A stretch of 64,000 nt of DNA from Nocardioides sp. zg-1230 (GTDB lineage: Bacteria > Actinomycetota > Actinomycetes > Propionibacteriales > Nocardioidaceae). Shown here piece by piece: positions 4,830 through 29,123 of this stretch (positions within the stretch are counted from its first letter, which is position 1; each line of letters starts with the position of its first letter). The translations under genes and the position numbers were made by a program. The notes beneath the pieces are model-generated. The model did no database searches. It worked only from the letters and a program-made list of their open reading frames with translations, and was not told where the DNA came from. The stretch is from positions 992,001-1,056,000 of the forward strand of contig NZ_JABJQZ010000001.1 in assembly GCF_013155335.1 (NCBI RefSeq). The letters run 5' to 3'.

Positions 4830-5465
4830 GTGACCGATCGTGCGCCGCAGCCCACCGCCGCCGGACTGGCCGAGCCGCTGCGCTCGCGCTGGAGCCCGAG
4901 CGTGTACGACGACGCGCACCGGCTGAGCAGCACCGAGATCGAGACCCTCCTGCGCGCGGCGCAGTGGGCGCCGAGCAAGGGCAACACCCAGCCGTGGGCG
5001 TTCTTCGTCTGCGTCCCGGGGACGCCCCAGCACGAGCGGCTCGTCGCGACGCTGAGCCGTGGCAACGCCGGCTGGGTGCCGCGTGCGTCGGTCGTCTTCG
5101 TCACCACCGCGCACGTGCGCGAGAGCGAGGAGCCCGGCGCGGCGTCGTACAGCGACCACGCCCTCTACGACGTCGGCCAGGCCGCGGCCCACCTCACCCT
5201 GCAAGCGCGGGCGATGGGGCTGCACGCGCACCAGTTCGCCGGCTTCGACCACGACGCGCTGGCCGAGGCGCTCGGCGTGCCCGCCACCCACCGCGTGCTC
5301 ACCGGCATCGCGGTCGGTGTGCCGGGCGACCCGGCCGAGGTCGACGAGCGCACCGCCGCGCGCGACCACCGCGACCGGGCGCGCAGGCCCATGGAGGAGT
5401 GGGTCTTCGGTGGCCGGTTCGGCGAGCCGTTCGTGACAGCACCGCTGGCAGACTCTGGGCCATGA
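4830..5465 (+). CDS. Nitroreductase-family FMN oxidoreductase
   Basis: This 211-residue protein shows the nitroreductase FMN-binding N-terminus WAPSKGNTQPWAF at about 45-57 and a later LYDVGQAAAHLTLQARAMGL, the helix that packs at the dimer interface. Members use NAD(P)H and FMN to reduce nitro compounds, quinones or similar electrophiles; the substrate cannot be predicted. I chose the GTG at 4830: CATACT lies seven bases before it, a leaderless-type -10. An ATG at 4797 is in frame but lies upstream of that box. The stop overlaps the glutathione peroxidase start (ATGA), indicating coupling. Confidence 0.85.
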   Translation: MTDRAPQPTAAGLAEPLRSRWSPSVYDDAHRLSSTEIETLLRAAQWAPSKGNTQPWAFFVCVPGTPQHERLVATLSRGNAGWVPRASVVFVTTAHVRESEEPGAASYSDHALYDVGQAAAHLTLQARAMGLHAHQFAGFDHDALAEALGVPATHRVLTGIAVGVPGDPAEVDERTAARDHRDRARRPMEEWVFGGRFGEPFVTAPLADSGP

Positions 5466-15527: not shown

Positions 15528-17000
15528 ATGACCGGCTACCCCACCCGACTCGCCCCCAGCGGCACCGTCCCCGAGGGCACGACCGAGATCTGGACCGACA
15601 GCAAGCGCCACCTGTGGCTGATCGGCCTGGTGGTGCCGAGCCTGGCGTTCGTCGCCTTCGGCGGCTACGTCGCGACCGGCTGGGGCGTGTGGTTCTGGGT
15701 CGGACCGATCGTGATCCTCGGCATCGTCCCCGCGATCGACCTCGTCGCCGGGCTCGACCGCGCCAACCCGCCCGACGACGTGATCGAGGCGCTCGAGCAG
15801 GACCGCTACTACCGGTGGGTCACCTACCTCTTCCTGCCCATCCAGTACGCCGGCTTCCTGGGCGCGATGGCGATCGTCGGGGGCTGGGACGTCCTCGGCG
15901 TGCTGGCCGACCAGCCGCTGTCGACCCTCGACAAGGTCGGCCTGGCGGTCTCGATCGGCTGCATCGGCGGCATCGGCATCAACACCGCCCACGAGCTCGG
16001 CCACAAGAAGGAGGCCAATGAGCGCTGGCTCTCGAAGATCGCGCTCGCCCAGGTCTGCTATGGGCACTTCTACATCGAGCACAACCGGGGCCACCACGTC
16101 CGGGTCGCCACCCCCGAGGACCCGGCGAGCGCCCGGCTCGGCGAGAGCTTCTACGCGTTCTGGCCGCGCGCGGTCGGCGGGTCGCTGCGGTCCGCCTGGC
16201 GGTTGGAGAAGCGGCGTCTCGCGCGGCGGAAGCAGTCGCCGTGGCGCCTCGACAACGACGTGCTCAACGCGTGGCTGATGACGCTCGTGCTGTGGGCGGG
16301 GGTGCTGGTCGCCTTCGGCGTCGAGGTGCTGCCGTACCTCCTCGTGCAGGCGGTCGTCGGCTTCTCGCTGCTCGAGGTCGTCAACTACATGGAGCACTAC
16401 GGGATGCTGCGGCAGAAGGTCGGCGAGGGCGACCGCCGGCGCTACGAGCGGGTCCTGCCCAGCCACAGCTGGAACTCCAACAACATCGCGACCAACGTGC
16501 TGCTCTACCACCTGCAGCGCCACAGCGACCACCACGCCAACCCGACGCGGCGCTACCAGACGCTGCGCGACTTCGAGGAGAGCCCGGTGCTGCCCACCGG
16601 CTACGCCGGGATGATCGTGCTGGCCATCGTGCCCGCGGTGTGGCGGCGGGTGATGGACCAGCGGGTCGTGGACCACTTCGGCGGCGACGTGTCGCTGGCC
16701 AACATCAGCCCGCGCAAGCGGGAGCAGTACCTCGCCCGGTACGCCGCCGCGCCGCCGCTGGTCGGGCAGGGCGAGGAACGAGCCCGTGTCGAGACCCAGG
16801 CGAAGCAGCCGGAGGAGGTGCTCGCGGCCCGGTGCCCGGGCTGCGACTACGTCTACGAGGTCGCCGCCGGTGACGAGCACGAGGGCTTCGCCGCGGGAAC
16901 GGCCTGGGCGGACGTCCCGGACGACTGGTGCTGCCCCGACTGCGGGGTGCGCGACAAGGTCGACTTCGTGCCCTGCGCGCCCGAGCGCGCGGCGGGCTGA
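15528..17000 (+). CDS. alkB: Alkane 1-monooxygenase fused to rubredoxin
   Basis: This 490-residue membrane di-iron hydroxylase would oxidise medium- or long-chain n-alkanes to 1-alkanols. The AlkB histidine boxes are NTAHELGHK (about 151-159), EHNRGHH (about 184-190) and LQRHSDHH (about 328-335), plus NYMEHYG. After an arginine-rich linker comes a C-terminal rubredoxin (about 433-485) with CPGCDYVYE and CPDCGV, the two CxxC iron ligands, which would pass electrons directly to the di-iron site. Most AlkBs use a separate rubredoxin; such fusions occur in actinobacteria including Nocardioides and Dietzia. The ATG at 15528 follows GGAGGTCAGGAG. No reductase or downstream alcohol dehydrogenase gene is adjacent. 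Confidence 0.95.
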   Translation: MTGYPTRLAPSGTVPEGTTEIWTDSKRHLWLIGLVVPSLAFVAFGGYVATGWGVWFWVGPIVILGIVPAIDLVAGLDRANPPDDVIEALEQDRYYRWVTYLFLPIQYAGFLGAMAIVGGWDVLGVLADQPLSTLDKVGLAVSIGCIGGIGINTAHELGHKKEANERWLSKIALAQVCYGHFYIEHNRGHHVRVATPEDPASARLGESFYAFWPRAVGGSLRSAWRLEKRRLARRKQSPWRLDNDVLNAWLMTLVLWAGVLVAFGVEVLPYLLVQAVVGFSLLEVVNYMEHYGMLRQKVGEGDRRRYERVLPSHSWNSNNIATNVLLYHLQRHSDHHANPTRRYQTLRDFEESPVLPTGYAGMIVLAIVPAVWRRVMDQRVVDHFGGDVSLANISPRKREQYLARYAAAPPLVGQGEERARVETQAKQPEEVLAARCPGCDYVYEVAAGDEHEGFAAGTAWADVPDDWCCPDCGVRDKVDFVPCAPERAAG

Positions 17001-17013: not shown

Positions 17014-18789
17014 TCAGCGCACCACCTCGCGCCGGTCGTCGGCGAGGCGGCGGGTGAGACCGGCGCGGTCGAGCCGGTCGAGCAGCGGCAGCACCACCCG
17101 GCGTGAGGTGTCGAGGTCCTGCCGGGCCGCGCTGGTGGTGAACGGCTGGTCGAGCCGGGCGAGGCGGGCGGCGGCGTCCCGGTCGGCCCCGGGCAGCAGC
17201 ACCAGACCCGGCGCGATGCGCCACAGCAGTCCGGCGCGCTCGGCGGCACCGAGGGCGCGCTCGTCGAGGCCGAGCTCACGCAGCCGGTCGGCGGTGGGGG
17301 CGGCGAAGGGCGCGACCTCCAGCTCTCGGCGTACGACGTCGACGGCGGCGGCGACCTCTCGCGGCAGCCCCGACCCGGGCGCGCGCACCCGACCACCGAC
17401 GACCGTCAGCGGCGGGCGCACCAGCGGCAGCACGAGGTCCGTGCTGGGCAGGCGGAGCCGGTCGGCGAGGACGGCCAGCGGCACGTCGGGGTCGAGCGGA
17501 TGGGAGCGCGCGTGCTCCTCGACGAGGCGCGGCAGCCGGTCGGCGAGCGCCGCGGCGAGATCGCGGCTGACCAGCCACGGCCCGGCCTCGAGGTGGTCGC
17601 CGGGTGTGGCCGGCACGCCGATCCGACGCAACCGGTCGCGAGGGGCCAGGCCGCGCCGCGCGAGCTCGTCGGCAAGACGGGGGGTGCCGTCCGCGCCGGC
17701 GAGCGCGGCCGCCCGTCGAACGGCGGCCCCGCGCCGCCGCAGCCGCGGGGGGTCGGGATCGAGGACGTCGACCCGCCACAGCCGCCGGTCGCCCGGGTCG
17801 CGCAGCAGCATCCGGTCGCCCACCCGCAGCGGGAGGGCGCGCTCGAGGGTGAGCCGGGCGATGTCTTCGTGCGAGCCGAGCGGTCGGTGGCGCACGGCGA
17901 CGTCCGCGGCGCCGACGTGCAGCTGCGGCGCGAGTGGGGGAGTGCCGGTGCCGGCGCCCGACCCCGGCGTCAGGCGTACGTCGACCACCTCGGTGTGGTG
18001 CCAGGCGTCCGGGGTGGTCAGCGCCGTCCCGCGGCCGATCCCGTCGAGGTCGCCGGTGAGGTTGAGCGCCACCCGGGCGGTCCCCGCCACGGTGTCGGTG
18101 TCGCGACCGAGGGCCTGCAGCCCGCGGACCCGCACCAGCCGGTCGCCGTCGGTGAGGGTGTCGCCCACCCGGACCGTGCCCGCGGGCAGGGTCGCGGTGA
18201 CCACCGTGCCCGCACCCCGCACGCTGAACCGGCGGTCCACCCAGAGGCGTACGTCGGCGTCCGCGTCGGGCACCGGGAGCGCGCCGAGCATCGTGGCGAG
18301 CGCCGCCCGCAGGTCGTCGAGGCCGGCGCCAGTGCGGCCGCTGACGGCGACGACGGGTGCGCCGGCCAGGCTGGTGCGCGACACCTCGGCGGCCGCCCGC
18401 GCCATCGCGGGGCCGGGGTCGGCGAGGTCGCTGCGCGTGACCGCGACGACCCCGTGGCCGACGCCGAGGGCGTCGAGGGCGGCGAGGTGCTCGGCCGCCT
18501 GCGGCATCCACGGGTCGTCGGCCGCGACGACCAGCAGCGCCGCCGGCACGGGCCCGACGCCTGCGAGCATCGTGGTGAGGAAGCGCTCGTGGCCTGGCAC
18601 GTCGACGAACGCCACGTCGCCGCCACCGGGCCCGGCCAGGCCGGGCCAGGAGGCCCACGCGTAGCCCAGCTCGATCGTCAGCCCGCGTCGCCGCTCCTCC
18701 TCGAGCCGGTCGGGGTCGGTGCCGGTGAGCGCCCGCACCAGGGTGGACTTGCCGTGGTCGACGTGACCCGCGGTCGCGACGACGTGCAT
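17014..18789 (-). CDS. selB: Selenocysteine-specific translation elongation factor
   Basis: The 591-residue protein is an EF-Tu-like GTPase with GHVDHGKST at about 8-16, the G3 motif DVPGH at about 64-68 and TRSD near 122. Beta-barrel domains follow and the C-terminal half has winged-helix segments (TADRLRELGLDERALGAAERAG; LDTSRRVVLPLLDRLDRAGL). The GTPase part carries Sec-tRNA to the ribosome and the winged helices bind the SECIS hairpin in mRNA. Its start overlaps the selA stop by one base (TGATG), so the two are coupled. Its likely client is the formate dehydrogenase at 21873-25244. Confidence 0.95.
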   Translation of the reverse strand: MHVVATAGHVDHGKSTLVRALTGTDPDRLEEERRRGLTIELGYAWASWPGLAGPGGGDVAFVDVPGHERFLTTMLAGVGPVPAALLVVAADDPWMPQAAEHLAALDALGVGHGVVAVTRSDLADPGPAMARAAAEVSRTSLAGAPVVAVSGRTGAGLDDLRAALATMLGALPVPDADADVRLWVDRRFSVRGAGTVVTATLPAGTVRVGDTLTDGDRLVRVRGLQALGRDTDTVAGTARVALNLTGDLDGIGRGTALTTPDAWHHTEVVDVRLTPGSGAGTGTPPLAPQLHVGAADVAVRHRPLGSHEDIARLTLERALPLRVGDRMLLRDPGDRRLWRVDVLDPDPPRLRRRGAAVRRAAALAGADGTPRLADELARRGLAPRDRLRRIGVPATPGDHLEAGPWLVSRDLAAALADRLPRLVEEHARSHPLDPDVPLAVLADRLRLPSTDLVLPLVRPPLTVVGGRVRAPGSGLPREVAAAVDVVRRELEVAPFAAPTADRLRELGLDERALGAAERAGLLWRIAPGLVLLPGADRDAAARLARLDQPFTTSAARQDLDTSRRVVLPLLDRLDRAGLTRRLADDRREVVR

Positions 18790-20129
18790 CAGGCGCTGCC
18801 CGCCCCCGCCGCACGGCGTACGGCGTCTGCGAGCGCGGCGTCGTCGGCCGGGTCGAGCGCCAGGAGGTCGAGGAGCAGCCGCCCGCGCACGGTGCGGCCC
18901 AGGACCGGCGGCTCGCCGGCGCGCAGGGGCGCGGCGAGGCGCTCGGGCAGTGCGATCGCTGCACTGGGCATCTCGACGCCGGGCGCTCCGCCGCCACCGA
19001 CCGCGCCGGCGGAGTCGACGACCTCGGCCCCCAGTGACGTCACCACGTCGGCGGGCCACGTCCCGACGATGGCGCGTGCTCGCGCCGCGAGGTCCTCGAC
19101 GGAGCGAGCGAGCGCTGCCCGCACCGGCGGCACCGGTCCGACCAGCGTCGCTTCGAGGGCGGCGAGGGTGAGCTTGTCGACGCGCAGGGCACGCGCGAAG
19201 GGGTCGCGCCGCAGCCGCTCGACCAGCCCGGCCTCGCCGAGCAGCAAGCCCGCCTGCGGGCCGCCGAGCAGCTTGTCGCCGGAGGCGGTGACGAGGTCGG
19301 CGCCCGCGCGCAGGGCGGACGCGGCGTCGGGCTCGTGGGGCAGGCGGGCGTGGGGCTCGAGCAGGCCCGAGCCGATGTCGACCACGAGCGGGACCCGGCG
19401 TCCGGCGTGCTCGAGGCCGGCGAGGTCGCGGGCGGGCACCGAGGAGGTGAAGCCGGTGACGGCGAAGTTGGAGGGGTGGACCTTGAGCACGAACGCGGTC
19501 GAGTCGTCCAGCGCGGAGGCGTAGTCGGCGAGGTGCACCCGGTTGGTCGTGCCGACCTCCCGCAACCGGGCGCCGACCGACTCCATCAGCTCGGGGATGC
19601 GGAAGCCGTCGCCGATCTCGACGAGCTCGCCCCGCGCGATGACGACCGTGTCGCGTCCGTCGTCGCCGCGCGCGAGCACCCGGGTCACGAGGGCGAGCGC
19701 GGCCGCGCCGTTGTTGACCACGTGCACCCCGCCCGCGTCGGGCACGGCCGAGGCGAGCGCCTCGAGCGCGCCGCGGCCGCGTCGTCCGCGCTGCCCGGTG
19801 GCCAGGTCGAGCTCCACGTCGGTGGCGCCGGCTGCGACGCGCACGGCCTCGACGGCGGCGCCGGACAGGGGCGCGCGGCCGAGGTTGGTGTGGACCACCA
19901 CGCCGGTCGCGTTGAGGACCCGGCGCAGCGTCGTGGCCGACGCCGGCAGCGTGTCCACGGCCACGTCGACGACCTCCTCCGGGGCGACCTCGCCCGACCG
20001 GCACCGCTCCTGCGCCCGGACGACGGCCTGCTTGACCAGCGCCGGCCCGAGCCGGGTCGCGGCGGCCCGCAGCCGCTCGTCGGTCAGGACCTGGTCGGTG
20101 CGCGGGACGGCCCGTCTCGGATCCGGCAC
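18789..20129 (-). CDS. selA: L-seryl-tRNA(Sec) selenium transferase
   Basis: The 446-residue PLP enzyme converts Ser-tRNA(Sec) to Sec-tRNA(Sec) with selenophosphate. Visible hallmarks are GVVVHTNLGRAPLSG, VVDIGSGLL and the PLP-lysine motif TASGDKLLGGPQAGLLLG. Length is close to E. coli SelA (463). I chose the GTG at 20129, four bases after AGGAGG; the longer GTG start at 20147 lies only three bases from the end of tRNA-Sec and has no ribosome site. It is flanked by selC upstream and selB downstream on one strand. Confidence 0.95.
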   Translation of the reverse strand: MPDPRRAVPRTDQVLTDERLRAAATRLGPALVKQAVVRAQERCRSGEVAPEEVVDVAVDTLPASATTLRRVLNATGVVVHTNLGRAPLSGAAVEAVRVAAGATDVELDLATGQRGRRGRGALEALASAVPDAGGVHVVNNGAAALALVTRVLARGDDGRDTVVIARGELVEIGDGFRIPELMESVGARLREVGTTNRVHLADYASALDDSTAFVLKVHPSNFAVTGFTSSVPARDLAGLEHAGRRVPLVVDIGSGLLEPHARLPHEPDAASALRAGADLVTASGDKLLGGPQAGLLLGEAGLVERLRRDPFARALRVDKLTLAALEATLVGPVPPVRAALARSVEDLAARARAIVGTWPADVVTSLGAEVVDSAGAVGGGGAPGVEMPSAAIALPERLAAPLRAGEPPVLGRTVRGRLLLDLLALDPADDAALADAVRRAAGAGSA

Positions 20130-20150
20130 GCGCCCTCCTGCTCTCACGTC

Positions 20151-20245
20151 TGGCGGAGGCGGACGGGAATCGAACCCGCCCGACCCAGCTGCTGGGTCGC
20201 AACGGTTTTGAGGACCGCGTCCGTCACCAGACGAGAACCGCCTCC
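20151..20245 (-). tRNA. selC: tRNA-Sec (anticodon UCA)
   Basis: This 95-base tRNA has the bacterial Sec layout. An 8-bp acceptor stem GGAGGCGG/CCGCCTCC is followed by discriminator G and an encoded CCA (complement of 20151-20153). There is a long variable arm (GACCCAGC/GCTGGGTC) and a T arm with GGGTTCGATTCCC. The anticodon is TCA (complement of 20209-20211) in stem GCGGT/ACCGT. The loop reads CCTCAAA, so base 33 is C where U is nearly universal. The gene sits between the rhodanese and selA genes. Confidence 0.96.
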
Positions 20246-20252
20246 ACGAGCC

Positions 20253-20258
20253 ACCCTA
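20253..20258 (-). promoter_or_regulatory. selC: -10 box (TAGGGT) of selC
   Basis: TAGGGT lies seven bases before the mature 5' end of tRNA-Sec, so the primary transcript would start at or next to that end. The box includes the TAG stop codon of the rhodanese gene. Confidence 0.6.
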
Positions 20259-20681
20259 GTGCGTGGCGACACGCCGCTCCGTCGCGATCTCGCCCGCCTG
20301 CACCTCCGCGACGTACGCCGCCCACGCGACGAAGCCGCCGGCCAGGTCGGTCGCCCGGGTGAGGCCGAGCTGCTGCAGGGTGTGGGCCGCGAGGCTCGAG
20401 CTGTAGCCCTCGGTGCACACCAGCACGATCCGCCGGTCCGGGTCGCCGGCGACCGCGAGGCGCCACGGGCTGGTCGGGTCGAGGCGCCACTCGAGCACGT
20501 TGCGGTCGACGACGACCGCGCCCGGCACCTCGCCGTCACGGAGGCGCTGCTGCACCGGGCGCATGTCGACCACGAGCGCCCCGGCCGCGGTGACGGCCTC
20601 GAGCTCCGCGGGCTCGACCCGTTCGAGCCCGCGCCGGCACTCCTCGAGCAGGCGGGCGATGGCGGAGCCGTCGGGGTCCAT
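20256..20681 (-). CDS. Rhodanese-like sulfurtransferase
   Basis: The 141-residue single-domain protein has VVDMRPVQQR, PGAVVVDRNVLEWRLDP and the active-site loop VLVCTEGYSSSLAA with the catalytic cysteine, then LGLTRATDLAGGFVAW, all typical of rhodaneses. It lies immediately upstream of selC on the same strand, its stop ten bases before the tRNA. Rhodaneses can carry selenium as a perselenide, so a role in feeding SelD is plausible but inferred. The ATG at 20681 is six bases after TAGCGT, a leaderless promoter. Confidence 0.88.
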   Translation of the reverse strand: MDPDGSAIARLLEECRRGLERVEPAELEAVTAAGALVVDMRPVQQRLRDGEVPGAVVVDRNVLEWRLDPTSPWRLAVAGDPDRRIVLVCTEGYSSSLAAHTLQQLGLTRATDLAGGFVAWAAYVAEVQAGEIATERRVATH

Positions 20682-20687
20682 GACCTG

Positions 20688-20693
20688 ACGCTA
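20688..20693 (-). promoter_or_regulatory. -10 box (TAGCGT) of the rhodanese gene
   Basis: Six bases separate the box from the ATG at 20681; it would also drive selC-selA-selB read-through. Confidence 0.55.
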
Positions 20694-20754
20694 GGCGCGC
20701 ACCCGCGGTCCCCGCCACGAACAACGGGGTGAGGGGCGAGGTGCGGCGTCTGCC

Positions 20755-20760
20755 TAGATT
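20755..20760 (+). promoter_or_regulatory. selD: -10 box (TAGATT) of selD
   Basis: Six bases separate the box from the selD GTG, a leaderless arrangement. It lies about 60 bases from the divergent rhodanese box. Confidence 0.55.
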
Positions 20761-20766
20761 GGCCGG

Positions 20767-21789
20767 GTGACCCAGCACGCGAGCACGTCCGCCAGCGAGA
20801 TCCGCCTGACCCAGTACGCCGCCGGCGGTGGGTGCGCGTGCAAGGTCCCGCCCGGGGAGCTGGAGCGCGTGCTGAGTGGGCTCGGTCGGGGCCGGGCGTC
20901 CGGCGACCTGCTGGTCGGTCTCGACCACGGCGACGACGCGGCCGCCGTACGCATCGAGGACGGGCCCGACGGCACCGGTCGGGCCGTCATCGCCACGGCC
21001 GACTTCTTCACCCCGGTCGTCGACGACGCCTACACGTTCGGCCGCATCGCCGCGACCAACGCGATGTCCGACGTCTGGGCGATGGGCGGCACGCCGGTGG
21101 TCGCGGTCAACCTGCTCGGCTGGCCGCGCGACCGGATCCCCTTCGACGTGGCGGCGGAGGTGCTGCGCGGGGGTGACGACGCGTGCACCGAGGCGGGGGC
21201 CTTCCTCGCCGGCGGGCACAGCATCGACGACCCGGAGCCGAAGTACGGCCTGGCGGTCACCGGCATCGCCGACCCGGACGCGCTCCTGCGCAACGACGCC
21301 GCGCAGCCCGGGATGCCCCTGACCCTGACCAAGCCGCTCGGCCTCGGCGTGCTCAACAACCGGCACAAGGCGACCGGTGAGTGGTTCGAGGAGGCGGTCG
21401 CGGTGATGACCGCGCTCAACCGCGACGCCAGCCGCGCCGCCGTCGCCGCCGGCGTGCGCGCGGCGACCGACGTCACGGGGTTCGGCCTGCTCGGCCACCT
21501 CATGAAGATGATGCGCGCGAGCGGCACGACTGCGGTCGTCGACGCGGCCGCGGTGCCGTACGTCGATGGGGCGCGGCAGTCGCTGGCCGACGGGTTCGTG
21601 CCCGGTGGCAGCCGGCGCAACCTCGACTGGGTGCGCGCCCACCTCGCCTCCGACCTCGACGAGGACGAGCTCGTGCTGCTCGCCGACGCGCAGACCTCGG
21701 GCGGGTTGCTGGTGGTGGGCGAGCTGCCCGGACACCCGGTCGTCGGCGAGGTGGTCGCGGCCGGGGAGCACGCGCTCGTCGTCCGGTGA
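20767..21789 (+). CDS. selD: Selenide, water dikinase (selenophosphate synthetase)
   Basis: The 340-residue enzyme makes selenophosphate from selenide and ATP, the selenium donor for SelA. The N-terminus IRLTQYAAGGGCACKVPP is the family signature, with Cys23 in the catalytic position (Cys, not Sec) and Lys26. Further motifs are GLDHGDDAAAV, TADFFTPVVDD, AATNAMSDVWAMGG and ATDVTGFGLLGHLMKM. The GTG at 20767 is leaderless. It is divergent from the rhodanese/selCAB block and 83 bases before the formate dehydrogenase operon. Confidence 0.96.
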   Translation: MTQHASTSASEIRLTQYAAGGGCACKVPPGELERVLSGLGRGRASGDLLVGLDHGDDAAAVRIEDGPDGTGRAVIATADFFTPVVDDAYTFGRIAATNAMSDVWAMGGTPVVAVNLLGWPRDRIPFDVAAEVLRGGDDACTEAGAFLAGGHSIDDPEPKYGLAVTGIADPDALLRNDAAQPGMPLTLTKPLGLGVLNNRHKATGEWFEEAVAVMTALNRDASRAAVAAGVRAATDVTGFGLLGHLMKMMRASGTTAVVDAAAVPYVDGARQSLADGFVPGGSRRNLDWVRAHLASDLDEDELVLLADAQTSGGLLVVGELPGHPVVGEVVAAGEHALVVR

Positions 21790-21810
21790 CGCGCCCACCC
21801 CTCCGGTGGT

Positions 21811-21832
21811 GGACGGCCCCCGGTGACCGTCC
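21811..21832. repeat. Inverted repeat between selD and the formate dehydrogenase operon
   Basis: GGACGG (21811-21816) and CCGTCC (21827-21832) flank a 10-base spacer just before the TAGGGT box at 21834. It could end selD transcription or bind a regulator of the operon. Confidence 0.35.
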
Positions 21833-21833
21833 C

Positions 21834-21839
21834 TAGGGT
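21834..21839 (+). promoter_or_regulatory. -10 box (TAGGGT) of the formate dehydrogenase operon
   Basis: The box is 33 bases before the ATG at 21873, leaving a short leader that contains GGAAGG as ribosome site. Confidence 0.5.
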
Positions 21840-21872
21840 CGAGGTCCAGCCCACACTCGGAAGGTGACGTCC

Positions 21873-24800
21873 ATGGCGGAGTCGAGGTCTCTCCTCCCGT
21901 GGCCGGTGCTGCGACAGCTGACGAGCGGTGACCTCCTCGGCCGCGGCAGGGCCGTGCGCTCGCGGCGTACGGACGAGGTCGAGCCGCGCACCAGCACCGC
22001 CGATCGGGTCGCACGCAGCGTGTGTCCCTACTGCGCCGTCGGGTGCGGGCAGAAGATCTTCGTCAAGGACGAGAAGATCGTGCAGATCGAGGGCGACCCC
22101 GACAGCCCCGTCAACCGCGGCCGGCTGTGCCCCAAGGGCTCGGCCAGCAAGAACCTCGTGACCAGCGAGCTCCGTGAGACCACGGTCAAGTACCGCCGCC
22201 CCTACGCCACCGAGTGGGAGGAGCTCGACCTCACCACCGCGATGGACATGGTGGCCGACCGGGTCGTGAAGTCGCGGCGCGACGCGTGGCAGGAGCTCGA
22301 CGAGAAGGACCGTCGGGTGCGCCGCACGATGGGCATCGCGAGCCTCGGTGGCGCGACGCTCGACAACGAGGAGAACTACCTGATCAAGAAGCTCTTCACT
22401 GCGATGGGCGCCATCCAGATCGAGAACCAGGCACGTATTTGACACTCCGCCACCGTCCCCGGTCTGGGGACCAGCTTCGGACGCGGCGGCGCCACCGGCT
22501 TCACGGCTGACCTGGCCAACGCGGACTGCATCATCATCCAGGGCTCCAACATGGCCGAGGCCCACCCCGTGGGCTTCCAGTGGGTGGTGGAGGCGCAGAA
22601 GCGTGGCGCCAAGGTGATCCACGTCGACCCGCGGTTCACCCGCACCAGCGCGGTCGCGGACAAGCACGTCCCGATCCGCGTGGGCAGCGACATCGCCTTC
22701 CTCGGCGGGATCATCCGCTACGTCCTCGAGAACGGCCTCGACTTCCGCGACTACGTCGTGAACTACACCAACGCCGCGACCATCGTCAGCGACAAGTTCG
22801 AGGACACCGACGACCTCGACGGGCTCTTCAGCGGCTTCGATCCCGACAAGCGCACCTACGACCCCACCAGCTGGCAGTACGACGTCGAGGACGAGGAAGG
22901 CCAGCAGAGCGCGGCGCAGGCCGACGACTCCGAGGAGACCCAGGAGCAGCGCGACACCGCGGCCGGCCTGCAGCACGAGGCCCACGGCATGCAGGTCGAG
23001 GGCAAGCCGCGCCGCGACGAGACGCTCCAGCACCCCCGCTGCGTCTACCAGGTGCTCCGGCGCCACTTCGCCCGCTACACCCCCGAGGTGGTCGAGCAGA
23101 CCTGTGGCGTCAGCCAGGCCGACTTCCTCGAGGTCTGCCGGGCGTGGACGGAGAACTCCGGCCGCGAGCGCACGACCGCGCTGGTCTACAGCGTCGGCTG
23201 GACCCAGCACAGCGTCGGCGTGCAGTACATCCGCACCGGCGCGATCCTCCAGCTGCTGCTCGGCAACATGGGCCGGCCCGGCGGCGGCATCATGGCGCTC
23301 CGCGGCCACGCCAGCATCCAGGGCTCGACCGACATCCCGACCCTGTTCAACATCCTCCCGGGCTACCTGCCCATGCCCAACCCCGACCAGCACGCCACCC
23401 TCGGCGACTACGTCGACAGCGTCCGCAACCCCGGCAGCAAGGGCTTCTGGTCCAAGGCGGACGCCTACACGGTCAGCCTGCTCAAGGCCTACTGGGGCGA
23501 TGCCGCGACGCCCGACAACGACTTCTGCTTCGACTACCTGCCCAAGATCACCGGTGACCACGGCACCTACCGCACCGTGCTCGACATGATCGACGGCAAG
23601 GTCTCCGGCTACTTCCTGCTGGGCCAGAACCCCGCCGTCGGCTCGGCCCACGGCCGCGCGCAGCGCCTGGGCATGGCCAACCTCGACTGGCTCGTCGTGC
23701 GCGACCTCTTCGAGATCGAGAGCGCGTCGTTCTGGAAGGACGCCCCCGAGGTCGCCACCGGCGAGATCGTGCCGCAGGAGTGCCGTACCGAGGTGTTCCT
23801 CTTCCCCGCGGCCTCCTACGCCGAGAAGGAGGGCACCTTCACGCAGACCCAGCGGATGCTCCAGTGGCGCGAGAAGGCGGTGAACCCGCCGGGCGACTGC
23901 CGCTCCGAGCTGTGGTTCTTCTACCACCTCGGCCGGATGGTGCGCGAGCGCCTGGCCGACTCGACGGACGAGCGCGACCGGCCCCTGCTCGACCTGGCGT
24001 GGGACTACCCCGTGCACGACGAGGGCGTCCTCGGCACCGTCGGCGCGCAGGCCTGGGGCGAGCCCAGCGCCGAGGCGGTGCTGAAGGAGATCAACGGCTA
24101 CGAGGTCGCCACCGGGCGGCCGCTGTCGAGCTTCGTGGAGATGAAGGCCGACGGGTCGACCGCCGGCGGCTGCTGGATCTACACCGGCGTCTTCGCCGAC
24201 GGTGTCAACCAGGCCAACCGCCGCACGTCCCGCCACGACCAGTCCTTCGTCGCCCCCGAGTGGGGCTGGGCCTGGCCGCTGAACCGGCGCATCCTCTACA
24301 ACCGCGCGTCCGCCGACCCCGACGGCAGGCCGTGGAGCGAGCGCAAGGCGTACGTCTGGTGGGACGAGGCGCAGCAGCAGTGGGTCGGCGACGACGTGCC
24401 CGACTTCGAGAAGACCAAGTCGCCGTCCTACCGGGCGCCCGCGGGGTCCGAGGGCGTCGAGGCGATCGAGGGCATCGACCCGTTCATCATGCAGGGCGAC
24501 GGGAAGGGCGCGCTCTACGTGCCGCAGGGCCTGATCGACGGCCCCATGCCGACCCACTACGAGCCGGTCGAGTCGCCGTTCCGCAACCCGCTCTACGGCC
24601 AGCAGGCCAACCCGACGCGCAAGACGTACGACCGCAACGACAACCGGATGAACCCGGCGCCGCCGGAGGAGCACAGCGACGTGTTCCCCTTCGTCTTCAC
24701 CACCAGCCGGCTCACCGAGCACCACACGGCCGGCGGCATGAGCCGCTACCTCGAGCACCTCGCCGAGCTGCAGCCGGAGATGTTCGTCGAGGTGTCCCCG

Positions 24801-25244
24801 GCGCTGGCCCAGGAGCGCGGACTCGAGCACATGGGCTGGTGCCACGTGGTGACCGCACGGTCGGCGGTCGAGGGACGGGTGCTGGTCACCGAGCGGCTCC
24901 GGCCGCTGCGGGTCGAGGGACGGACGGTCCACCAGGTCTGGATGCCGTACCACTGGGGCCAGGGCGGTCTGGTCAGCGGCGACTCGACCAACGACCTGTT
25001 CGGCATCTCGCTCGACCCCAACGTGCTGATCCAGGAGAGCAAGGTCGGCACCTGCGACGTACGCCCCGGGCGGCGGCCGACCGGTGCCGCGCTGCGCGAG
25101 CTGGTCGGCGACTACGCGCACCGGGCCGGGATCCGGGACGACGTGCACCCCCGGATCGTCACCGCCTCGGACCAGGCGCAGGCCCGGTCCCTGGCGGCGG
25201 CCGACACCAGCGACGACGACCAGGACGACCAGGGAGGCCAGTGA
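21873..25244 (+). CDS. fdhA: Formate dehydrogenase catalytic subunit, selenocysteine-containing
   Basis: The 1123-residue molybdopterin enzyme oxidises formate to CO2. The 4Fe-4S site is VCPYCAVGCGQ (about 50-60) with a later RLCPKGSAS. Residue 190 is encoded by TGA (22440-22442) inside ENQARI-U-HSATVPGLGTS, the active-site position that is Sec or Cys in this family. The same frame then stays open to 25244 and aligns with the family (NMAEAHPVGFQW, NPAVGSAHGRAQ, FTTSRLTEHHTAGG). A SECIS hairpin follows the UGA. Length is near E. coli FdnG (1015) with an added acidic, Gln-rich segment at about 335-380. No clear twin-arginine signal is visible. I chose the ATG at 21873, eight bases after GGAAGG. 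A one-base TGATG overlap couples it to the next gene. Confidence 0.95.
22455..22471 (+). promoter_or_regulatory. SECIS hairpin for UGA recoding
   Basis: Stem GTCCCC (22455-22460)/GGGGAC (22466-22471) has loop GGTCT, beginning 12 bases after the UGA. The E. coli SECIS that binds SelB also presents GGUCU in its loop at a similar distance. Confidence 0.85.
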
Positions 25245-26158
25245 TGGGCCGCAACAGCCTCTTCGGACCGCTCGACCCGGCGCCCGACGCCGGCTACACG
25301 GACGCGCCGAAGCGCAAGGGCTTCTTCACCGACACCAGCGTCTGCATCGGCTGCAAGGCCTGCGAGGTGGCGTGCAAGGAGTGGAACGACGTCCCGGAGA
25401 ACCTGTTCGAGATGCTCGGCACGTCCTACGACAACAGCCACTCGCTCAACGCCAACCAGTGGCGCCACGTCGCCTTCGTCGAGCGCCCGGCGACCCCGGC
25501 CCGGCCCACCACCGACCTCGGCATGCCGAGCGTCGGCGCCCCGCCCAGCGACGTGCCCGAGGACGCGAAGCCCGACTTCCAGTGGCTGATGTCGTCCGAC
25601 GTGTGCAAGCACTGCACCCATGCCGCCTGCCTCGACGTGTGCCCCACGGGCTCGCTCTTCCGCAGCGAGTTCGGCACGGTCGTGGTGCAGGACGAGATCT
25701 GCAACGGGTGCGGCTACTGCGTCGCAGCCTGCCCGTACGGCGTCATCGACCGCCGCCGCGGTCCGGAGGGCGACCCCAAGGTGGGCATCGCGCAGAAGTG
25801 CACGCTCTGCTACGACCGCCTCACCGACGGCCAGCGCCCGGCCTGCGCGGCGGCGTGCCCGACGGAGTCCATCCAGTACGGCGACGTCGACGAGCTGCGC
25901 GAGCGCGCCACCGCGCGGGTGGAGCTGCTCCACGAGCGGGGCGTCATGGACGCCCGGCTCTACGGCAACGACCCCGAGGACGGCGTGGGCGGCACCGGTG
26001 CGATGTTCCTCCTGCTCGACGAGCCCGAGGTCTACGGCCTGCCGCCCGACCCGGTCGTGACGACGAAGGACCTCCCGCAGATGTTCACCCGGGCCGGGAT
26101 GGCGGGCACGGCCCTGCTCATCGGCGCGGCCCTGTCCTTCGTGCGGAGGCGGCCATGA
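25244..26158 (+). CDS. fdhB: Formate dehydrogenase iron-sulfur (beta) subunit
   Basis: The 304-residue protein carries four cysteine clusters for 4Fe-4S centres: CIGCKACEVAC, CKHCTHAACLDVCP, CNGCGYCVAACP and a fourth formed by CTLC with CAAACP. This is the ferredoxin-like relay that moves electrons from the catalytic subunit to the membrane subunit. A single hydrophobic helix near the C-terminus (AGMAGTALLIGAALSFV) probably anchors it, as in FdnH/FdoH. Start and stop overlap the neighbours (TGATG and ATGA). Confidence 0.95.
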   Translation: MGRNSLFGPLDPAPDAGYTDAPKRKGFFTDTSVCIGCKACEVACKEWNDVPENLFEMLGTSYDNSHSLNANQWRHVAFVERPATPARPTTDLGMPSVGAPPSDVPEDAKPDFQWLMSSDVCKHCTHAACLDVCPTGSLFRSEFGTVVVQDEICNGCGYCVAACPYGVIDRRRGPEGDPKVGIAQKCTLCYDRLTDGQRPACAAACPTESIQYGDVDELRERATARVELLHERGVMDARLYGNDPEDGVGGTGAMFLLLDEPEVYGLPPDPVVTTKDLPQMFTRAGMAGTALLIGAALSFVRRRP

Positions 26159-27183
26159 CCGAGGGCCCCGGGACGCAGGTGCAGCACGGCGGCAGCCCCG
26201 GCCGCTCTCGCGGCAGCTCGCGCGGCGGCGACCGGGTGATGGTGCCCGAGGCCGACTTCACCTCCTACTACGGCCGTCCGATCGTCAAGGCGGCGCCGTG
26301 GGAGCACGACATCGCCTACTACCTCTTCACCGGCGGCGTCGCGGCCGGCTCCTCGCTGCTCGCCGGCGGTGCGGACCTGACCGACCGACCCGGCCTGCGT
26401 CGCGCGGGACGGATGGGCTCGCTCGTCGGGCTGCTGCTCAGCGTCGTCGCCCTGGTGCACGACCTCGGCAGGCCGAGCCGCTTCCTCAACATGCTGCGCG
26501 TGGTCAAGCTGACCTCGCCGATGTCGGTCGGCACGTGGATCCTGTCGCTGCACGGGCCGTTCGCAGGCCTGGCCGCGGGCGCCGAGCTGGTCGGGATGCT
26601 GCCCACCCGCTGGCAGCGCGGGCCGGTGCGCCTGCTGCTGCGCCTCGGACGCCCGGCCGGGCTGGTGGGGGCCGTGACGGCCCCGCCCGTGGCGGCGTAC
26701 ACCGCCGTGCTGCTGGCCGACACCGCCACCCCGGCGTGGCACTCGGCCTACGAGGAGCTGCCCTTCGTCTTCTGCGGCTCCGCCGCCGCGGCCTCGGGCG
26801 GCTGGGCCATGGTGACCGCCCCGGTGGCGGAGGCCGGACCCGCGCGCACCTTCGCCGTCGGCGGCGCCGTCGTCGAGCTGGCGATGGCCCACCGCATGGA
26901 GGCGTCGATGGGCCTGTCGGCCGAGACGCTCCACACCGGCACCGCCGGCCGGTGGATGCGGGCCAGCAAGGTGCTCACTGCGGCAGGCGCGGCGGGCGCC
27001 CTCCTGGGTGGTCGCAGCCGTGTGATCTCGGTCGTTTCGGGTACTGCCCTGATGGCTGGTTCGTTCTGCACACGCCTGGGTGTCTACGAGGCCGGGATGG
27101 CCTCGGCGAGGGACCCGAAGTACACGGTGGTGCCGCAGCGCGAACGGGTCGAGCGCGGCGAACAGGTGCGCTACGAGGGCTGA
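26155..27183 (+). CDS. nrfD: NrfD/PsrC-type membrane subunit of the formate dehydrogenase
   Basis: The 342-residue integral membrane protein has an N-terminal hydrophilic Ser/Gly/Arg-rich stretch, then SYYGRPIVKAAPWEHDIAYY, a typical NrfD entry, and eight or nine membrane segments. HDLGRPSRFLNMLRV is the conserved NrfD loop. Such subunits pass electrons to the quinone pool without haem, in place of the cytochrome b FdnI. The ATG at 26155 overlaps the fdhB stop (ATGA). The three genes thus form one membrane-bound complex. Confidence 0.9.
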   Translation: MTEGPGTQVQHGGSPGRSRGSSRGGDRVMVPEADFTSYYGRPIVKAAPWEHDIAYYLFTGGVAAGSSLLAGGADLTDRPGLRRAGRMGSLVGLLLSVVALVHDLGRPSRFLNMLRVVKLTSPMSVGTWILSLHGPFAGLAAGAELVGMLPTRWQRGPVRLLLRLGRPAGLVGAVTAPPVAAYTAVLLADTATPAWHSAYEELPFVFCGSAAAASGGWAMVTAPVAEAGPARTFAVGGAVVELAMAHRMEASMGLSAETLHTGTAGRWMRASKVLTAAGAAGALLGGRSRVISVVSGTALMAGSFCTRLGVYEAGMASARDPKYTVVPQRERVERGEQVRYEG

Positions 27184-27236
27184 ACCGCAGGTCATCTCGG
27201 GCCATCGGACGGCCGGGCCGGACGAAGGAGACAGGC

Positions 27237-28526
27237 ATGGAAGAGACCACCACCCGCGCGCGCGGCGAGGCCGCGCAGGACGGCTCCACTCCCGGCGGCT
27301 TTCGCTGGCTGCTGGTCGCCGGCGCGCTGCTCCTCCAGCTGGCCATCGGCGGCGTCTACGCCTGGTCGGTGATCGGCGGGGCGCTGGAGGAGGCGGACTC
27401 CTGGCAGCTGAGCAAGGTCGAGGCGTCGCTGCCGTTCACCGTGAGCGTCGGCATGATCTTCGTCGGCAGCTACATCGGAGGGCGGCTGCAGGACAGGCGC
27501 GGCCCTCGGGTCGTCGCCCTCGCGGGAGGTGCGATCTACGCCGGAGGCATCCTGCTGGCCTCGTTCGCCAACGGGTCGGACGACTACTGGATGCTCATCG
27601 TCGGCTACGGCGTGATCAGCGGCTTCGGCCTCGGCTTCGCCTACATCGTCCCGATCGCGATGCTCCAGAAGTGGTTCCCCGACAAGAAGGGCCTCATCAC
27701 CGGTCTTGCCGTCGGCGGGTTCGGCTTCGGTGCGGTGATCACCGCTCCGGTGGCGCAGGCCCTGCTGGACCGCAACGCGGACGACCCGGCGAGCGTCTTC
27801 CTGCCTCTGGGGCTGGCCTACCTCGTGATGGCACTGGTCGGGGCTTCGGTCTTCCGCGACCCGCCGGAGGGATACCGGGTCCTCGGGTACGAACCGCCCG
27901 CCGGGACCGACGCCGGCGGCGACGCCGTCGACTACACGCAGGGTGAGGCGCTGCGCACGCCCCAGTGGTTCCTCCTGACCGCCATCCTCACGCTGAGCGT
28001 CAGCGCGGGCATCGCGCTGATCTCCCAGGCGAAGTCCAGCGCCACCGACATCGCCGGCGTCAGCGCCACCGGTGCCGCGACGCTGGTGGGCGTGCTGGCG
28101 ATCTTCAACGGCGCCGGCCGCATCGTCTGGGCCGGCATCTCCGACCGCATCGGGCGGATGAAGACGTTCGCCGCGATCCTGGCCCTGCAGGGCGTGTGCC
28201 TGATCCTGCTCCCGCACGCCGGCAGCGTGATCCTGTTCTCCGCACTCGCCGCGATCATCTACCTCTGCTACGGCGGCACGTTCGGCACGATGCCCGCCAC
28301 CGCCGGCGACTTCTTCGGCGTGCGCAACGCCGGCGCGATCTACGGCCTCATGCTCATCGGCTGGAGCCTGGGCGGCGTCATCGGCCCGGTGCTCGCCTCG
28401 GCGCTCATCGGCGAGGAGAAGGCCTACACCCTCGCCTACACGACCATCGGCGTCATCGCGCTGGCCGCCGTGGCGCTCACCTTCGTCACCAAGGTGCCCG
28501 CCGGCCGGCACGCCGAGCACGACTGA
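27237..28526 (+). CDS. OFA-family MFS transporter, probably formate/oxalate
   Basis: The 429-residue protein has 12 predicted membrane segments and the OFA-family N-terminal pattern LAIGGVYAWSVIGGALEEA, then GRLQDRRGPRVVALAGG, GFGLGFAYIVPIAMLQKWFPDKKGL, AGISDRIGRMKTF and FFGVRNAGAIYGLMLIGWSLGG. OFA members include oxalate:formate antiporters. The neighbouring formate dehydrogenase makes formate (or oxalate) a sensible substrate here, by context. The ATG at 27237 follows GAAGGAGA, 53 bases after nrfD, so it is probably part of the operon. Confidence 0.85.
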   Translation: MEETTTRARGEAAQDGSTPGGFRWLLVAGALLLQLAIGGVYAWSVIGGALEEADSWQLSKVEASLPFTVSVGMIFVGSYIGGRLQDRRGPRVVALAGGAIYAGGILLASFANGSDDYWMLIVGYGVISGFGLGFAYIVPIAMLQKWFPDKKGLITGLAVGGFGFGAVITAPVAQALLDRNADDPASVFLPLGLAYLVMALVGASVFRDPPEGYRVLGYEPPAGTDAGGDAVDYTQGEALRTPQWFLLTAILTLSVSAGIALISQAKSSATDIAGVSATGAATLVGVLAIFNGAGRIVWAGISDRIGRMKTFAAILALQGVCLILLPHAGSVILFSALAAIIYLCYGGTFGTMPATAGDFFGVRNAGAIYGLMLIGWSLGGVIGPVLASALIGEEKAYTLAYTTIGVIALAAVALTFVTKVPAGRHAEHD

Positions 28527-28559: not shown

Positions 28560-29123
28560 ATGGCGACGACCACCCGCGAGCGCATCGTCGCGGCAGCCGT
28601 GGAGATGACGACCTCGTCGGGCTGGGCAGCGGTCACGATGGCGCGGCTCGCCGACGCGGCCGGCGTGAGCCGCCAGACCGTCTACAACGAGGTCGGCTCC
28701 AAGCCGGCGCTGGCCGAGACGATGATCCTCGAGGAGCTCGCCCGCTTCCTGCAGGTCGTCGAGGGGGCCTTCGACGCCGAGCCCGACGACCTCACCCGCG
28801 CCATCGAGCGCGCCGTCACCGACGTGCTCACCTACGCCCGCGCCAACAAGCTGCTGCACGCCGTCGTCAGCGCGACCCACGGCGCCGACACCGAGCTGCT
28901 GCCCCTGCTGACGACCAACGCCGGCTCGCTGCTCGGCGCGGCCAAGGACGTCATCAGCGCCCGCGTGGCGCCGTACGCCCCGGGCGTCGACGCCGCCCAC
29001 CTCGACCCCGCCATCGACATGGTCGTGCGCGTGGTGCTGAGCCACGTCATGCAGCCCTCGGGCCCGCCCGAGCGGACCGCCGCCGACATCGCCTGGCTCG
29101 CCGGTCGCGTCCTGCGCGGCTGA
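28560..29123 (+). CDS. TetR-family transcriptional regulator
   Basis: The 187-residue protein has an N-terminal HTH, TRERIVAAAVEMTTSSGWAAVTMARLADAAGVSRQTVYNEVGSK, split here as helices about 4-20, 28-35 and 39-45, and an all-helical ligand domain. It is followed after 51 bases by an MFS exporter with its own promoter, a common regulator/efflux pairing. CAGACT lies six bases before the ATG. Confidence 0.88.
   Translation: MATTTRERIVAAAVEMTTSSGWAAVTMARLADAAGVSRQTVYNEVGSKPALAETMILEELARFLQVVEGAFDAEPDDLTRAIERAVTDVLTYARANKLLHAVVSATHGADTELLPLLTTNAGSLLGAAKDVISARVAPYAPGVDAAHLDPAIDMVVRVVLSHVMQPSGPPERTAADIAWLAGRVLRG

What the first reader, a model, noticed from the sequence alone, without database searches (positions are those of the whole stretch)
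17014..28526. Complete selenocysteine system beside its likely client enzyme
selC, selA, selB, selD, a rhodanese gene, and a formate dehydrogenase whose active-site codon is UGA lie within about 11.5 kb, followed by a formate/oxalate-type transporter. Nothing else in the window uses Sec (the peroxidase at 5462 has Cys). The block looks like a self-contained trait that could be gained or lost as a unit.
Basis: partly seen in the sequence, partly recalled or inferred. Interest (0 to 1): 0.8.

Follow-up and report, generated by a model that had tools for sequence, protein, structure and literature searches.

The report
Portable selenocysteine cassette with formate dehydrogenase
In this bacterial genome, which likely belongs to the genus Nocardioides, the genes that make and insert the rare amino acid selenocysteine sit beside the one enzyme predicted to use it, a formate dehydrogenase; several relatives lack the whole block at the same spot, and gene trees indicate that it has likely been passed between distant bacteria, its parts sometimes swapped separately.

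Summary
A SECIS hairpin follows the UGA: its six-pair stem forms in 111 of 111 related genes, one pair covaries, and its loop lies where E. coli fdhF has it. Among 147 genomes of the genus, 43 have selC, 42 SelB and 41 this FDH; none of the 104 without selC has SelB or FDH at the limits used. The block sits between alkB and tetR, which are 13-139 bp apart in 14 relatives lacking it. Three Rhodococcus species carry it nested inside Nocardioides trees, and an Arthrobacter plasmid typed as conjugative carries a complete relative. So gain and loss as a trait is supported. A strict single unit is not: sel genes, FDH genes and transporter have conflicting trees, rhodanese and transporter are optional, and one genome has FDH 1 Mb from sel. 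Movable Sec-FDH clusters are already published, in Actinobacteria too: a new member of a known kind, with a clear empty site and evidence of reassortment.

The parts
15528..17000 (+). alkB-like alkane hydroxylase fused to rubredoxin; left neighbour of the block and left border of the empty site
   Evidence: Pfam FA_desaturase + Rubredoxin; found at E<=1e-60 in 130 of 147 genomes of the genus; 13-139 bp from tetR in 14 fetched genomes without the block
17014..18789 (-). selB, Sec-specific elongation factor, 591 aa
   Evidence: PF00009, PF09107; TIGR00475 240.7 bits, just below its cut-off 242.25
18789..20147 (-). selA, selenocysteine synthase, 452 aa
   Evidence: TIGR00474 403.6 bits, over cut-off
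20151..20245 (-). selC, tRNA-Sec, anticodon TCA
   Evidence: ARAGORN; RF01852 77.6 bits
20256..20681 (-). single-domain rhodanese, 141 aa, about 10 bp upstream of selC; optional part
   Evidence: PF00581; absent between selC and selD of the nearest relative G095; close homologues (E<=1e-33) in 16 of 43 Sec+ and 3 of 104 Sec- genomes
20688..20693 (-). TAGCGT, -10-like hexamer 6 nt before the rhodanese ATG (leaderless promoter, inferred)
   Evidence: read from sequence; inference, no transcript data
20755..20760 (+). TAGATT, -10-like hexamer 6 nt before the selD GTG (leaderless promoter, inferred)
   Evidence: read from sequence; inference
20767..21789 (+). selD, selenophosphate synthetase with Cys in GGGCACK
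   Evidence: TIGR00476 383.3 bits; the same motif in 93 of 95 SelD loci, duplicates included
21834..21839 (+). TAGGGT, -10-like hexamer upstream of fdhA (inferred)
   Evidence: read from sequence; inference
21873..25244 (+). fdhA, selenocysteine formate dehydrogenase alpha, 1123 aa including Sec, ATG start (open frame from 21864)
   Evidence: single internal TGA; NF041513 1942.7 bits; best-scoring solved relative E. coli FDH-N 1kqf
22440..22442 (+). UGA codon for Sec in NQARI-U-HS
   Evidence: a stop codon at this place in 119 of 119 loci, UGA in 110 of 111 after removing duplicates
22455..22471 (+). SECIS hairpin: 6-bp stem at +15..+20 / +26..+31, loop GGUCU at +21..+25
   Evidence: all six pairs formed in 111 of 111 genes, covariation at pair 17-29; same loop position as E. 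coli fdhF
25244..26158 (+). fdhB, 4Fe-4S electron-transfer subunit with a moderately hydrophobic C-terminal tail
   Evidence: Pfam Fer4 domains; TIGR01582 172.7 bits, below its cut-off 334.7; tail
26155..27183 (+). nrfD-type membrane subunit (quinone-side anchor, inferred)
   Evidence: PF03916
27237..28526 (+). MFS monocarboxylate transporter; optional part
   Evidence: NF049980 SfMCT 414.7 bits, over cut-off; not found in the blocks of G029 and G088, where a short stretch like its 3' end remains
28560..29123 (+). tetR-family regulator; right border of the empty site
   Evidence: PF18556, PF00440; found at E<=1e-40 in 130 of 147 genomes of the genus

Best explanation
The 11.5-kb block between alkB and tetR is a complete UGA-selenocysteine decoding system (selC, selA, selB, selD) joined to its predicted client, a selenocysteine formate dehydrogenase, and it has likely moved between genomes by horizontal transfer. 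Predicted working: SelD makes selenophosphate, SelA converts Ser-tRNA-Sec to Sec-tRNA-Sec, and SelB carries it to the UGA at 22440, which is marked by the hairpin just downstream; the finished FdhA would oxidise formate at a Mo/W centre and pass electrons through FdhB and the NrfD-type membrane subunit to the quinone pool, probably with the active site on the cytoplasmic side because FdhA lacks an export signal. The transporter probably brings in a small monocarboxylate. Shown here: the genes, the UGA, the conserved hairpin, the joint presence and absence, the empty site and the conflicting trees. Inferred: enzymatic function, Sec incorporation, promoters, transporter substrate, the vehicle and the direction of transfer. 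After arrival, the machinery genes and the FDH genes have likely been exchanged separately by recombination, so the block is a linked set of modules rather than one frozen unit.
For: Gene identities. Frame through UGA. Hairpin: all six stem pairs in 111 of 111 genes; pair 17-29 occurs as five pair types, all standard (77.5 of 111 expected if independent); the loop codon is GGT in 106 of 111, although GGT makes up 8.9% of Gly codons elsewhere in these genes; loop GGUCU at +21..+25 as in E. coli fdhF. Joint presence: selC 43, SelB 42, FdhA 41 of 147; SelB and FdhA 0 of the other 104. Empty site: 13-139 bp between alkB and tetR matches in 14 genomes without the block against 10.2-11.6 kb in nine with it. 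Not one clade on the rpoB-region tree (AU p 0.0006, G129 left out of the group). Block genes reject the rpoB-region tree (delta lnL 687 and 420). Rhodococcus trio nested within Nocardioides: keeping 24 Nocardioidaceae rows apart from it is rejected for sel (AU p 0.0011) and FDH genes (AU p 0.0022). A complete relative, with selC and UGA, on a plasmid typed as conjugative. Own genome: 14 UGA+GGTCTG sites, only fdhA with a full stem; one of six molybdopterin-family genes has a TGA.
Against: No transposase or integrase among the block's genes and no boundary repeat (longest shared word at the borders 8 bp). Composition is like the surroundings (GC 0.737 against 0.715 and 0.722), so no compositional sign of recent arrival. 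The block at the alkB-tetR site in both G129 and the window's clade could also mean an ancestral block with several losses. Tree conflict could partly reflect model error: parts of one module also reject each other's trees, with loss ranges that overlap slightly, and the 11-genome rpoB-region tree has weak inner branches. The two modules place the Rhodococcus trio next to different Nocardioides. SelB scores just under its family cut-off. Four of the six stem pairs never vary and a fifth could not fail given its letters, so the covariation rests on one pair. The folding z-score of the hairpin region alone is not significant. The assembly is flagged 8.25% contaminated.
Confidence: 0.85

Rival explanations
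1. Ancestral trait lost many times: the block stood between alkB and tetR in the ancestor of these species and was deleted repeatedly and cleanly; little transfer is needed within the genus.
For: G129, outside the window's clade on the rpoB-region tree, has the block at the same site with its own diverged flanks. G029 and G088 show a nested clean deletion of the transporter gene. Losses of Sec traits are known (PMC1794560).
Against: Sel and FDH genes reject the rpoB-region tree by 687 and 420 lnL units. G129's block is about as close to the window's as G044's is (sel 79.6 and 78.5%, FDH 85.9 and 84.6%), although G129's rpoB region is further away (87.1 and 92.6%). The Rhodococcus nesting needs transfer.
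Confidence: 0.3
2. Ordinary conserved cluster with no special mobility: the genes are adjacent only because they are co-regulated.
For: fdhA is within 5 kb of selC in 38 of the 41 genomes with FdhA. No mobility genes in the block.
Against: Empty sites, different flanks and at least three gene orders within one genus, conflicting trees, plasmid-borne relatives.
Confidence: 0.05
3. The UGA is a true stop or sequencing error and fdhA is broken.
For: Standard code reads a stop at 22440.
Against: The frame stays open for 933 codons beyond; UGA is conserved in 110 and the hairpin in 111 of 111 genes; selC, selA, selB and selD stand beside it.
Confidence: 0.01

Closest known systems
selABC-fdhA clusters moved by horizontal transfer in Proteobacteria (PMC1794560, passages seen)
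   Same: selA, selB and selC clustered and next to fdhA, the only selenoprotein gene in those organisms; transfer of machinery together with a client
   Different: here in Actinobacteria, with selD included, an exact empty site, and evidence that machinery and client modules were also exchanged separately
Sec-trait transfers among Actinobacteria (PMC5029168, passages and rows of Table 2 seen)
   Same: transfer of the Sec trait between actinobacterial suborders; the passages describe selD and fdhA close to the other genes or in one operon
   Different: other genera (Microlunatus and Nakamurella to Arthrobacter); in the passages that I saw no insertion site or module conflict is described
FDH1 cluster of Actinomycetospora chiangmaiensis DSM 45062 (PMC7176365, passages and section 7 seen)
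   Same: Sec-FdhA, FdhB and FdhC with selA and selB; formate removal depends on selenium in culture
   Different: that genome has three Sec-FDHs and SelD is not labelled as part of the FDH1 cluster; here one Sec-FDH was found, with selD in the block
NCBIfam NF041513 actinobacterial formate dehydrogenase
   Same: 1942.7 bits over a 1400 cut-off across nearly the whole protein
   Different: nothing that sets this protein apart
E. coli FDH-N alpha, 1kqf and the E. coli fdhF SECIS
   Same: active-site residue at the same place of the motif NQAR.-H; hairpin loop GGUCU at the same distance from UGA
   Different: no twin-arginine leader with a hydrophobic stretch; membrane subunit is of the NrfD family; stem sequence differs

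Membership tests
Bacterial Sec-decoding trait | selC with UCA anticodon | tested here: met
[quoted passage not shown]
   selB just under the curated cut-off of TIGR00475 but with SelB-wing_3 over its cut-off
Bacterial Sec-decoding trait | at least one selenoprotein gene with in-frame UGA and SECIS | tested here: met
Bacterial Sec-decoding trait | Sec is incorporated in the living cell | not testable with these tools
   needs 75Se labelling or mass spectrometry
Actinobacterial Sec formate dehydrogenase (NF041513) | score over the curated cut-off | tested here: met
   1942.7 against 1400
Exported FDH-N | twin-arginine signal peptide with hydrophobic core | tested here: not met
   first 60 residues: best 19-residue Kyte-Doolittle mean 0.37; one RR pair at residue 31 without a hydrophobic stretch
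Oxalate/formate antiporter (OxlT) | score over TIGR04259 or TIGR00890 cut-off | tested here: not met
   149.8 against 335 and 218 against 374.85
SfMCT monocarboxylate transporter | score over NF049980 cut-off | tested here: met
   414.7 against 320; substrate not tested
tRNA 2-selenouridine synthase (SelU/YbbB) | rhodanese domain plus C-terminal P-loop domain (recalled) | tested here: not met
   141-aa protein with a rhodanese domain, no SelU model among the hits
Transposon or integrative element | recombinase gene and terminal repeats | tested here: not met
   no recombinase among the block's genes; longest shared word at the borders 8 bp
Horizontally movable trait cluster | presence in distant taxa nested inside another taxon's tree, and an empty site in relatives | tested here: met

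The most novel reading that the evidence does not exclude
Selenocysteine use in Actinobacteria travels as two or three docking modules (machinery selABCD; client fdhAB-nrfD; transporter) that keep finding each other side by side: once a genome can read UGA as Sec, clients are swapped by recombination independently of the machinery. The alkB-tetR gap is a landing place used more than once, and conjugative plasmids such as Arthrobacter pYA7-1a are the vehicle.
Probability: 0.4. Interest if true: 0.6.

Novelty: new member of a known kind. Interest (0 to 1): 0.42.

Why it matters
Why a 21st amino acid comes and goes among bacteria is an open question. One genus with 43 carriers among 147 genomes, clean empty sites, one client enzyme found and a complete relative on a plasmid typed as conjugative is a tractable system for testing gain, loss and client exchange directly. 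The separate histories of machinery and client refine the published view that they must arrive together.

Tried and rejected
UAG-coded selenocysteine: one gene (L081, Marmoricola MAG) has TAG at the Sec place. Its genome's only tRNA-Sec over the cut-off has anticodon TCA, and the codon lies 38 bases from the contig end, so I treat it as a likely assembly fault and not as the Geodermatophilaceae CUA case described in PMC5330540 (section 17).

Tn3 transposon as carrier of the plasmid copy: a Tn3-family transposase gene lies next to selB on pYA7-1a, but no long inverted-repeat pair encloses the block among the 21 pairs reported; rejected as shown.

Rhodanese as a core part: absent from the nearest relative and from most fetched blocks. 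Its close homologues are enriched in Sec+ genomes (16 of 43 against 3 of 104, Fisher p 1.4e-7), but genomes are not independent and the E-value cut was chosen after seeing the list (63 of 147 genomes match at the search's own limit of 1e-12), so the link stays a lead.

Single-sequence folding of the hairpin was uninformative (z -0.22 and -0.71); the comparative test decided. The first rpoB-region tree had four rows in the wrong direction and was replaced. Pair 13-33 was tried as an extension of the stem and never pairs (0 of 111); 14-32 pairs in 76 of 111 against 69 expected, so the stem is six pairs. The transporter follows neither module's tree. A flank-gene tree was too weakly supported to use alone. 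The first test of the Rhodococcus nesting (AU 8e-59 for sel, 2.8e-6 for FDH) had two further same-genus rows and one Ornithinicoccus row on the other side, some of which also fall among the 24 rows and inflate the rejection; one search repeats it with a single outgroup row, and its values are the ones used.

Unanswered: the client of the Sec system in G082. Gaps between alkB and tetR were measured, between match ends, only in the 26 regions where both were found, not in all 147 genomes; 13 of the 14 small-gap genomes were picked for having the most similar alkB. The pattern search finds only SECIS elements with the same loop and spacing as fdhA, and the molybdopterin search covers one enzyme family, so 'one client' means none other found by these two searches.
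Full report
WHAT IS THERE. The window lies at G000:C1:992001-1056000 of a 4.9-Mb assembly. On the minus strand, in reading order, stand rhodanese (20681-20256), selC (20245-20151), selA (20147-18789) and selB (18789-17014), nearly gapless. On the plus strand stand selD (20767-21789), fdhA (21873-25244), fdhB, nrfD and an MFS transporter ending at 28526. The two strands diverge from an 85-bp gap between rhodanese and selD; each of these two genes has a TANNNT hexamer six bases before its start codon, read as leaderless promoters (inference).

THE UGA AND ITS HAIRPIN. One TGA interrupts the fdhA frame at 22440-22442, in the motif NQARI-U-HS, which aligns with the active-site residue of E. coli FDH-N. 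All 119 FdhA loci that I gathered have a stop codon there; after removing eight duplicate loci, 110 of 111 are TGA and one is TAG. A six-pair stem at +15..+20 and +26..+31 forms in 111 of 111 genes. Pair 17-29 takes five forms, all standard pairs, where 77.5 of 111 would be expected if the sides were independent; pair 16-30 could not fail given its letters, and the other four pairs never vary, so the covariation rests on one pair. The loop codon is GGT in 106 and AGT in 5 of 111, whereas GGT is 8.9% of Gly codons elsewhere in these genes; the codon before the UGA is ATT in 88 and ATA in 21 of 111, codons used for 3.7% and 1.1% of Ile elsewhere. The loop GGUCU stands at the same distance from UGA as in E. 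coli fdhF. Single-sequence folding alone was not significant.

OTHER CLIENTS. In the genome, 14 places have TGA followed at this spacing by GGTCTG, against 16 for the reversed control pattern. Only fdhA has all six stem pairs; the best of the others has four. Of the 13 examined for coding signal, only fdhA has third-position GC of 0.9 or more on both sides; the fourteenth (L264) was checked for the stem alone and forms three of six pairs. Among six molybdopterin-family genes (seven matches) only fdhA has a TGA. The peroxidase near 5462 uses Cys. Elements with another loop or spacing would be missed.

PRESENCE ACROSS THE GENUS. In 147 genomes, drawn by the tool from a larger group, the tRNA-Sec scores fall into two sets: 43 genomes with a match of 69.5 bits or more, the rest with nothing above 48.5; I took the first set as carriers after seeing this gap. 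SelB is found in 42 and FdhA in 41, all of them carriers; none of the 104 others has either at the limits used (E 1e-30 and 1e-60). The exceptions among carriers are G036 (selC alone) and G082 (sel genes, no FdhA). All 40 FdhA that span the site have the TGA; G143 is a fragment. fdhA is within 5 kb of selC in 38 of the 41: 36 of the 40 fetched loci, plus the window and G047. It is about 12 kb away in G058, 1.03 Mb away in G059, and on another contig in G143.

THE EMPTY SITE. In nine genomes with the block at this site, the alkB and tetR matches are 10.2-11.6 kb apart; in 14 fetched genomes without it they are 13-139 bp apart. Thirteen of these 14 were chosen because their alkB is the most similar to the window's. 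G107 (286 bp), G072 (1.8 kb) and G128 (3.8 kb, Sec genes elsewhere) are the other fetched cases. Other carriers hold the block at other places and in at least three gene orders. On a tree of the rpoB region (28 of the 30 genomes asked for) the genomes with the block at alkB do not form one clade (AU p 0.0006, with G129 left out of the group; four changes on the tree, three forced by well-supported branches). G029 and G088 lack the transporter, and a short stretch like its 3' end remains between nrfD and tetR, evidence of one clean internal deletion.

TRANSFER AND MODULES. In the FdhA tree (111 rows, FastTree) the window's five-genome clade is sister to Rhodococcus gordoniae, R. phenolicus and Rhodococcus sp. 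HM1 (local support 97), while R. rhodnii sits with Kibdelosporangium. With one outgroup row, keeping 24 Nocardioidaceae rows apart from the Rhodococcus trio is rejected for sel genes (delta lnL 75.8, AU p 0.0011) and for FDH genes (71.5, AU p 0.0022). The two sets disagree with each other, however: FDH genes put the trio beside the window's clade (68/62) and sel genes put it beside G127 (88/87). SelA+SelB data reject the FDH tree by 519 lnL units (AU p 0.005), SelD data by 179, and FDH data reject the sel trees by about 545; SelD data also reject the SelA+SelB tree, by 29. Per 100 columns the loss is 15-54 between modules and 0-21 within modules; the ranges overlap slightly and several within-module tests also reject, so recombination or model error inside modules is not excluded. 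The transporter rejects both trees (175 and 138 units, 16 loci). In 11 genomes both modules reject the rpoB-region tree (687 and 420 units), and the rpoB-region data reject both module trees (182 and 114), though some inner branches of that small rpoB-region tree are weak. Each genome that has them shows one FdhA match, and one SelB match apart from the split gene in G117, so hidden paralogues are an unlikely cause.

A POSSIBLE VEHICLE. Of 72,556 plasmid records searched, an Arthrobacter sp. YA7-1 plasmid of 129,773 bp, typed as conjugative, carries fdhA, fdhB, nrfD, selD, selC, selA and selB with an in-frame TGA (its hairpin loop reads AGUUU), next to a Tn3-family transposase gene and with a site-specific integrase gene about 3.6 kb beyond fdhA. 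A Tsukamurella plasmid of 238,675 bp, typed as non-mobilizable, carries the same set. Neither is a close relative of the window's block (about 68 and 71% DNA identity over the matched parts), so this shows that such blocks ride on plasmids, not how this one arrived. Carriage of sel genes on a Sinorhizobium plasmid is known to me from memory, and 50 Sinorhizobium records appear in each.

WHAT IS KNOWN. Co-transfer of selABC with fdhA was proposed in 2006 (PMC1794560, passages) and Sec-trait transfers among Actinobacteria were listed in 2016 (PMC5029168, passages and rows of Table 2). A selenium-dependent actinobacterial FDH cluster with selA and selB was studied in culture (PMC7176365, passages and section 7). 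A 2026 review (PMC13188914, passages) had no match for 'actinobacter' or 'actinomycet'. Searches for Nocardioides with selenocysteine (5 papers, none on this from titles and abstract starts), for conjugative plasmid with selA, selenocysteine and formate dehydrogenase (0 papers), and for Arthrobacter with plasmid, selenocysteine and formate dehydrogenase (2 papers, neither on this from titles and abstract starts) found no report of this site or plasmid in the open-access library; module exchange as such was not searched for by name.

VERDICT. Observation confirmed; the cassette idea is right for gain and loss of the trait and for the borders, but too simple as a single unit. The kind is known; the empty site and the module conflict are the new parts.

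Noticed in passing
L108 (G082:C5:59101-79100): Complete sel genes and a rhodanese, but no FdhA homologue and no TGA-bearing molybdopterin-family enzyme found in that genome; nearby frames look, from memory, like a methylamine-dehydrogenase cluster. The selenoprotein that this system serves is unknown.
   Followed up: partly
L121 (G036:C3:48001-67000): A high-scoring selC (76.7 bits) with no SelB or FdhA found in that genome; possibly a relic of loss or a stray contig.
   Followed up: partly
L081:36-38: TAG instead of TGA at the Sec place of fdhA in a Marmoricola MAG, 38 bases from the contig end, while its tRNA-Sec reads UGA.
   Followed up: yes
L133 (G117:C1:1682870-1684625): SelB match split into two overlapping frames, one with an internal TGA; a broken gene or a frame error in that assembly.
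   Followed up: no
L143 (G059): sel genes at 3.34 Mb and the Sec-fdhA at 2.31 Mb on the same contig, a natural unlinking of machinery and client.
   Followed up: no
window 15528-17000 and 28560-29123: alkB-rubredoxin fusion and a tetR gene are each found in 130 of 147 genomes of the genus and are within 300 bp of each other in 15 of the 17 fetched regions that have both and no block between them; tetR may regulate alkB.
   Followed up: partly
L273 (NZ_CP110115.1:20000-56000): A plasmid typed as conjugative with a whole Sec-FDH trait between transposase/recombinase genes and an integrase gene.
   Followed up: partly
G000 assembly: The window's assembly is flagged 8.25% contaminated; the window's contig is 1.66 Mb and gene order around the block matches that of same-genus relatives, so the block itself is not suspect.
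   Followed up: no
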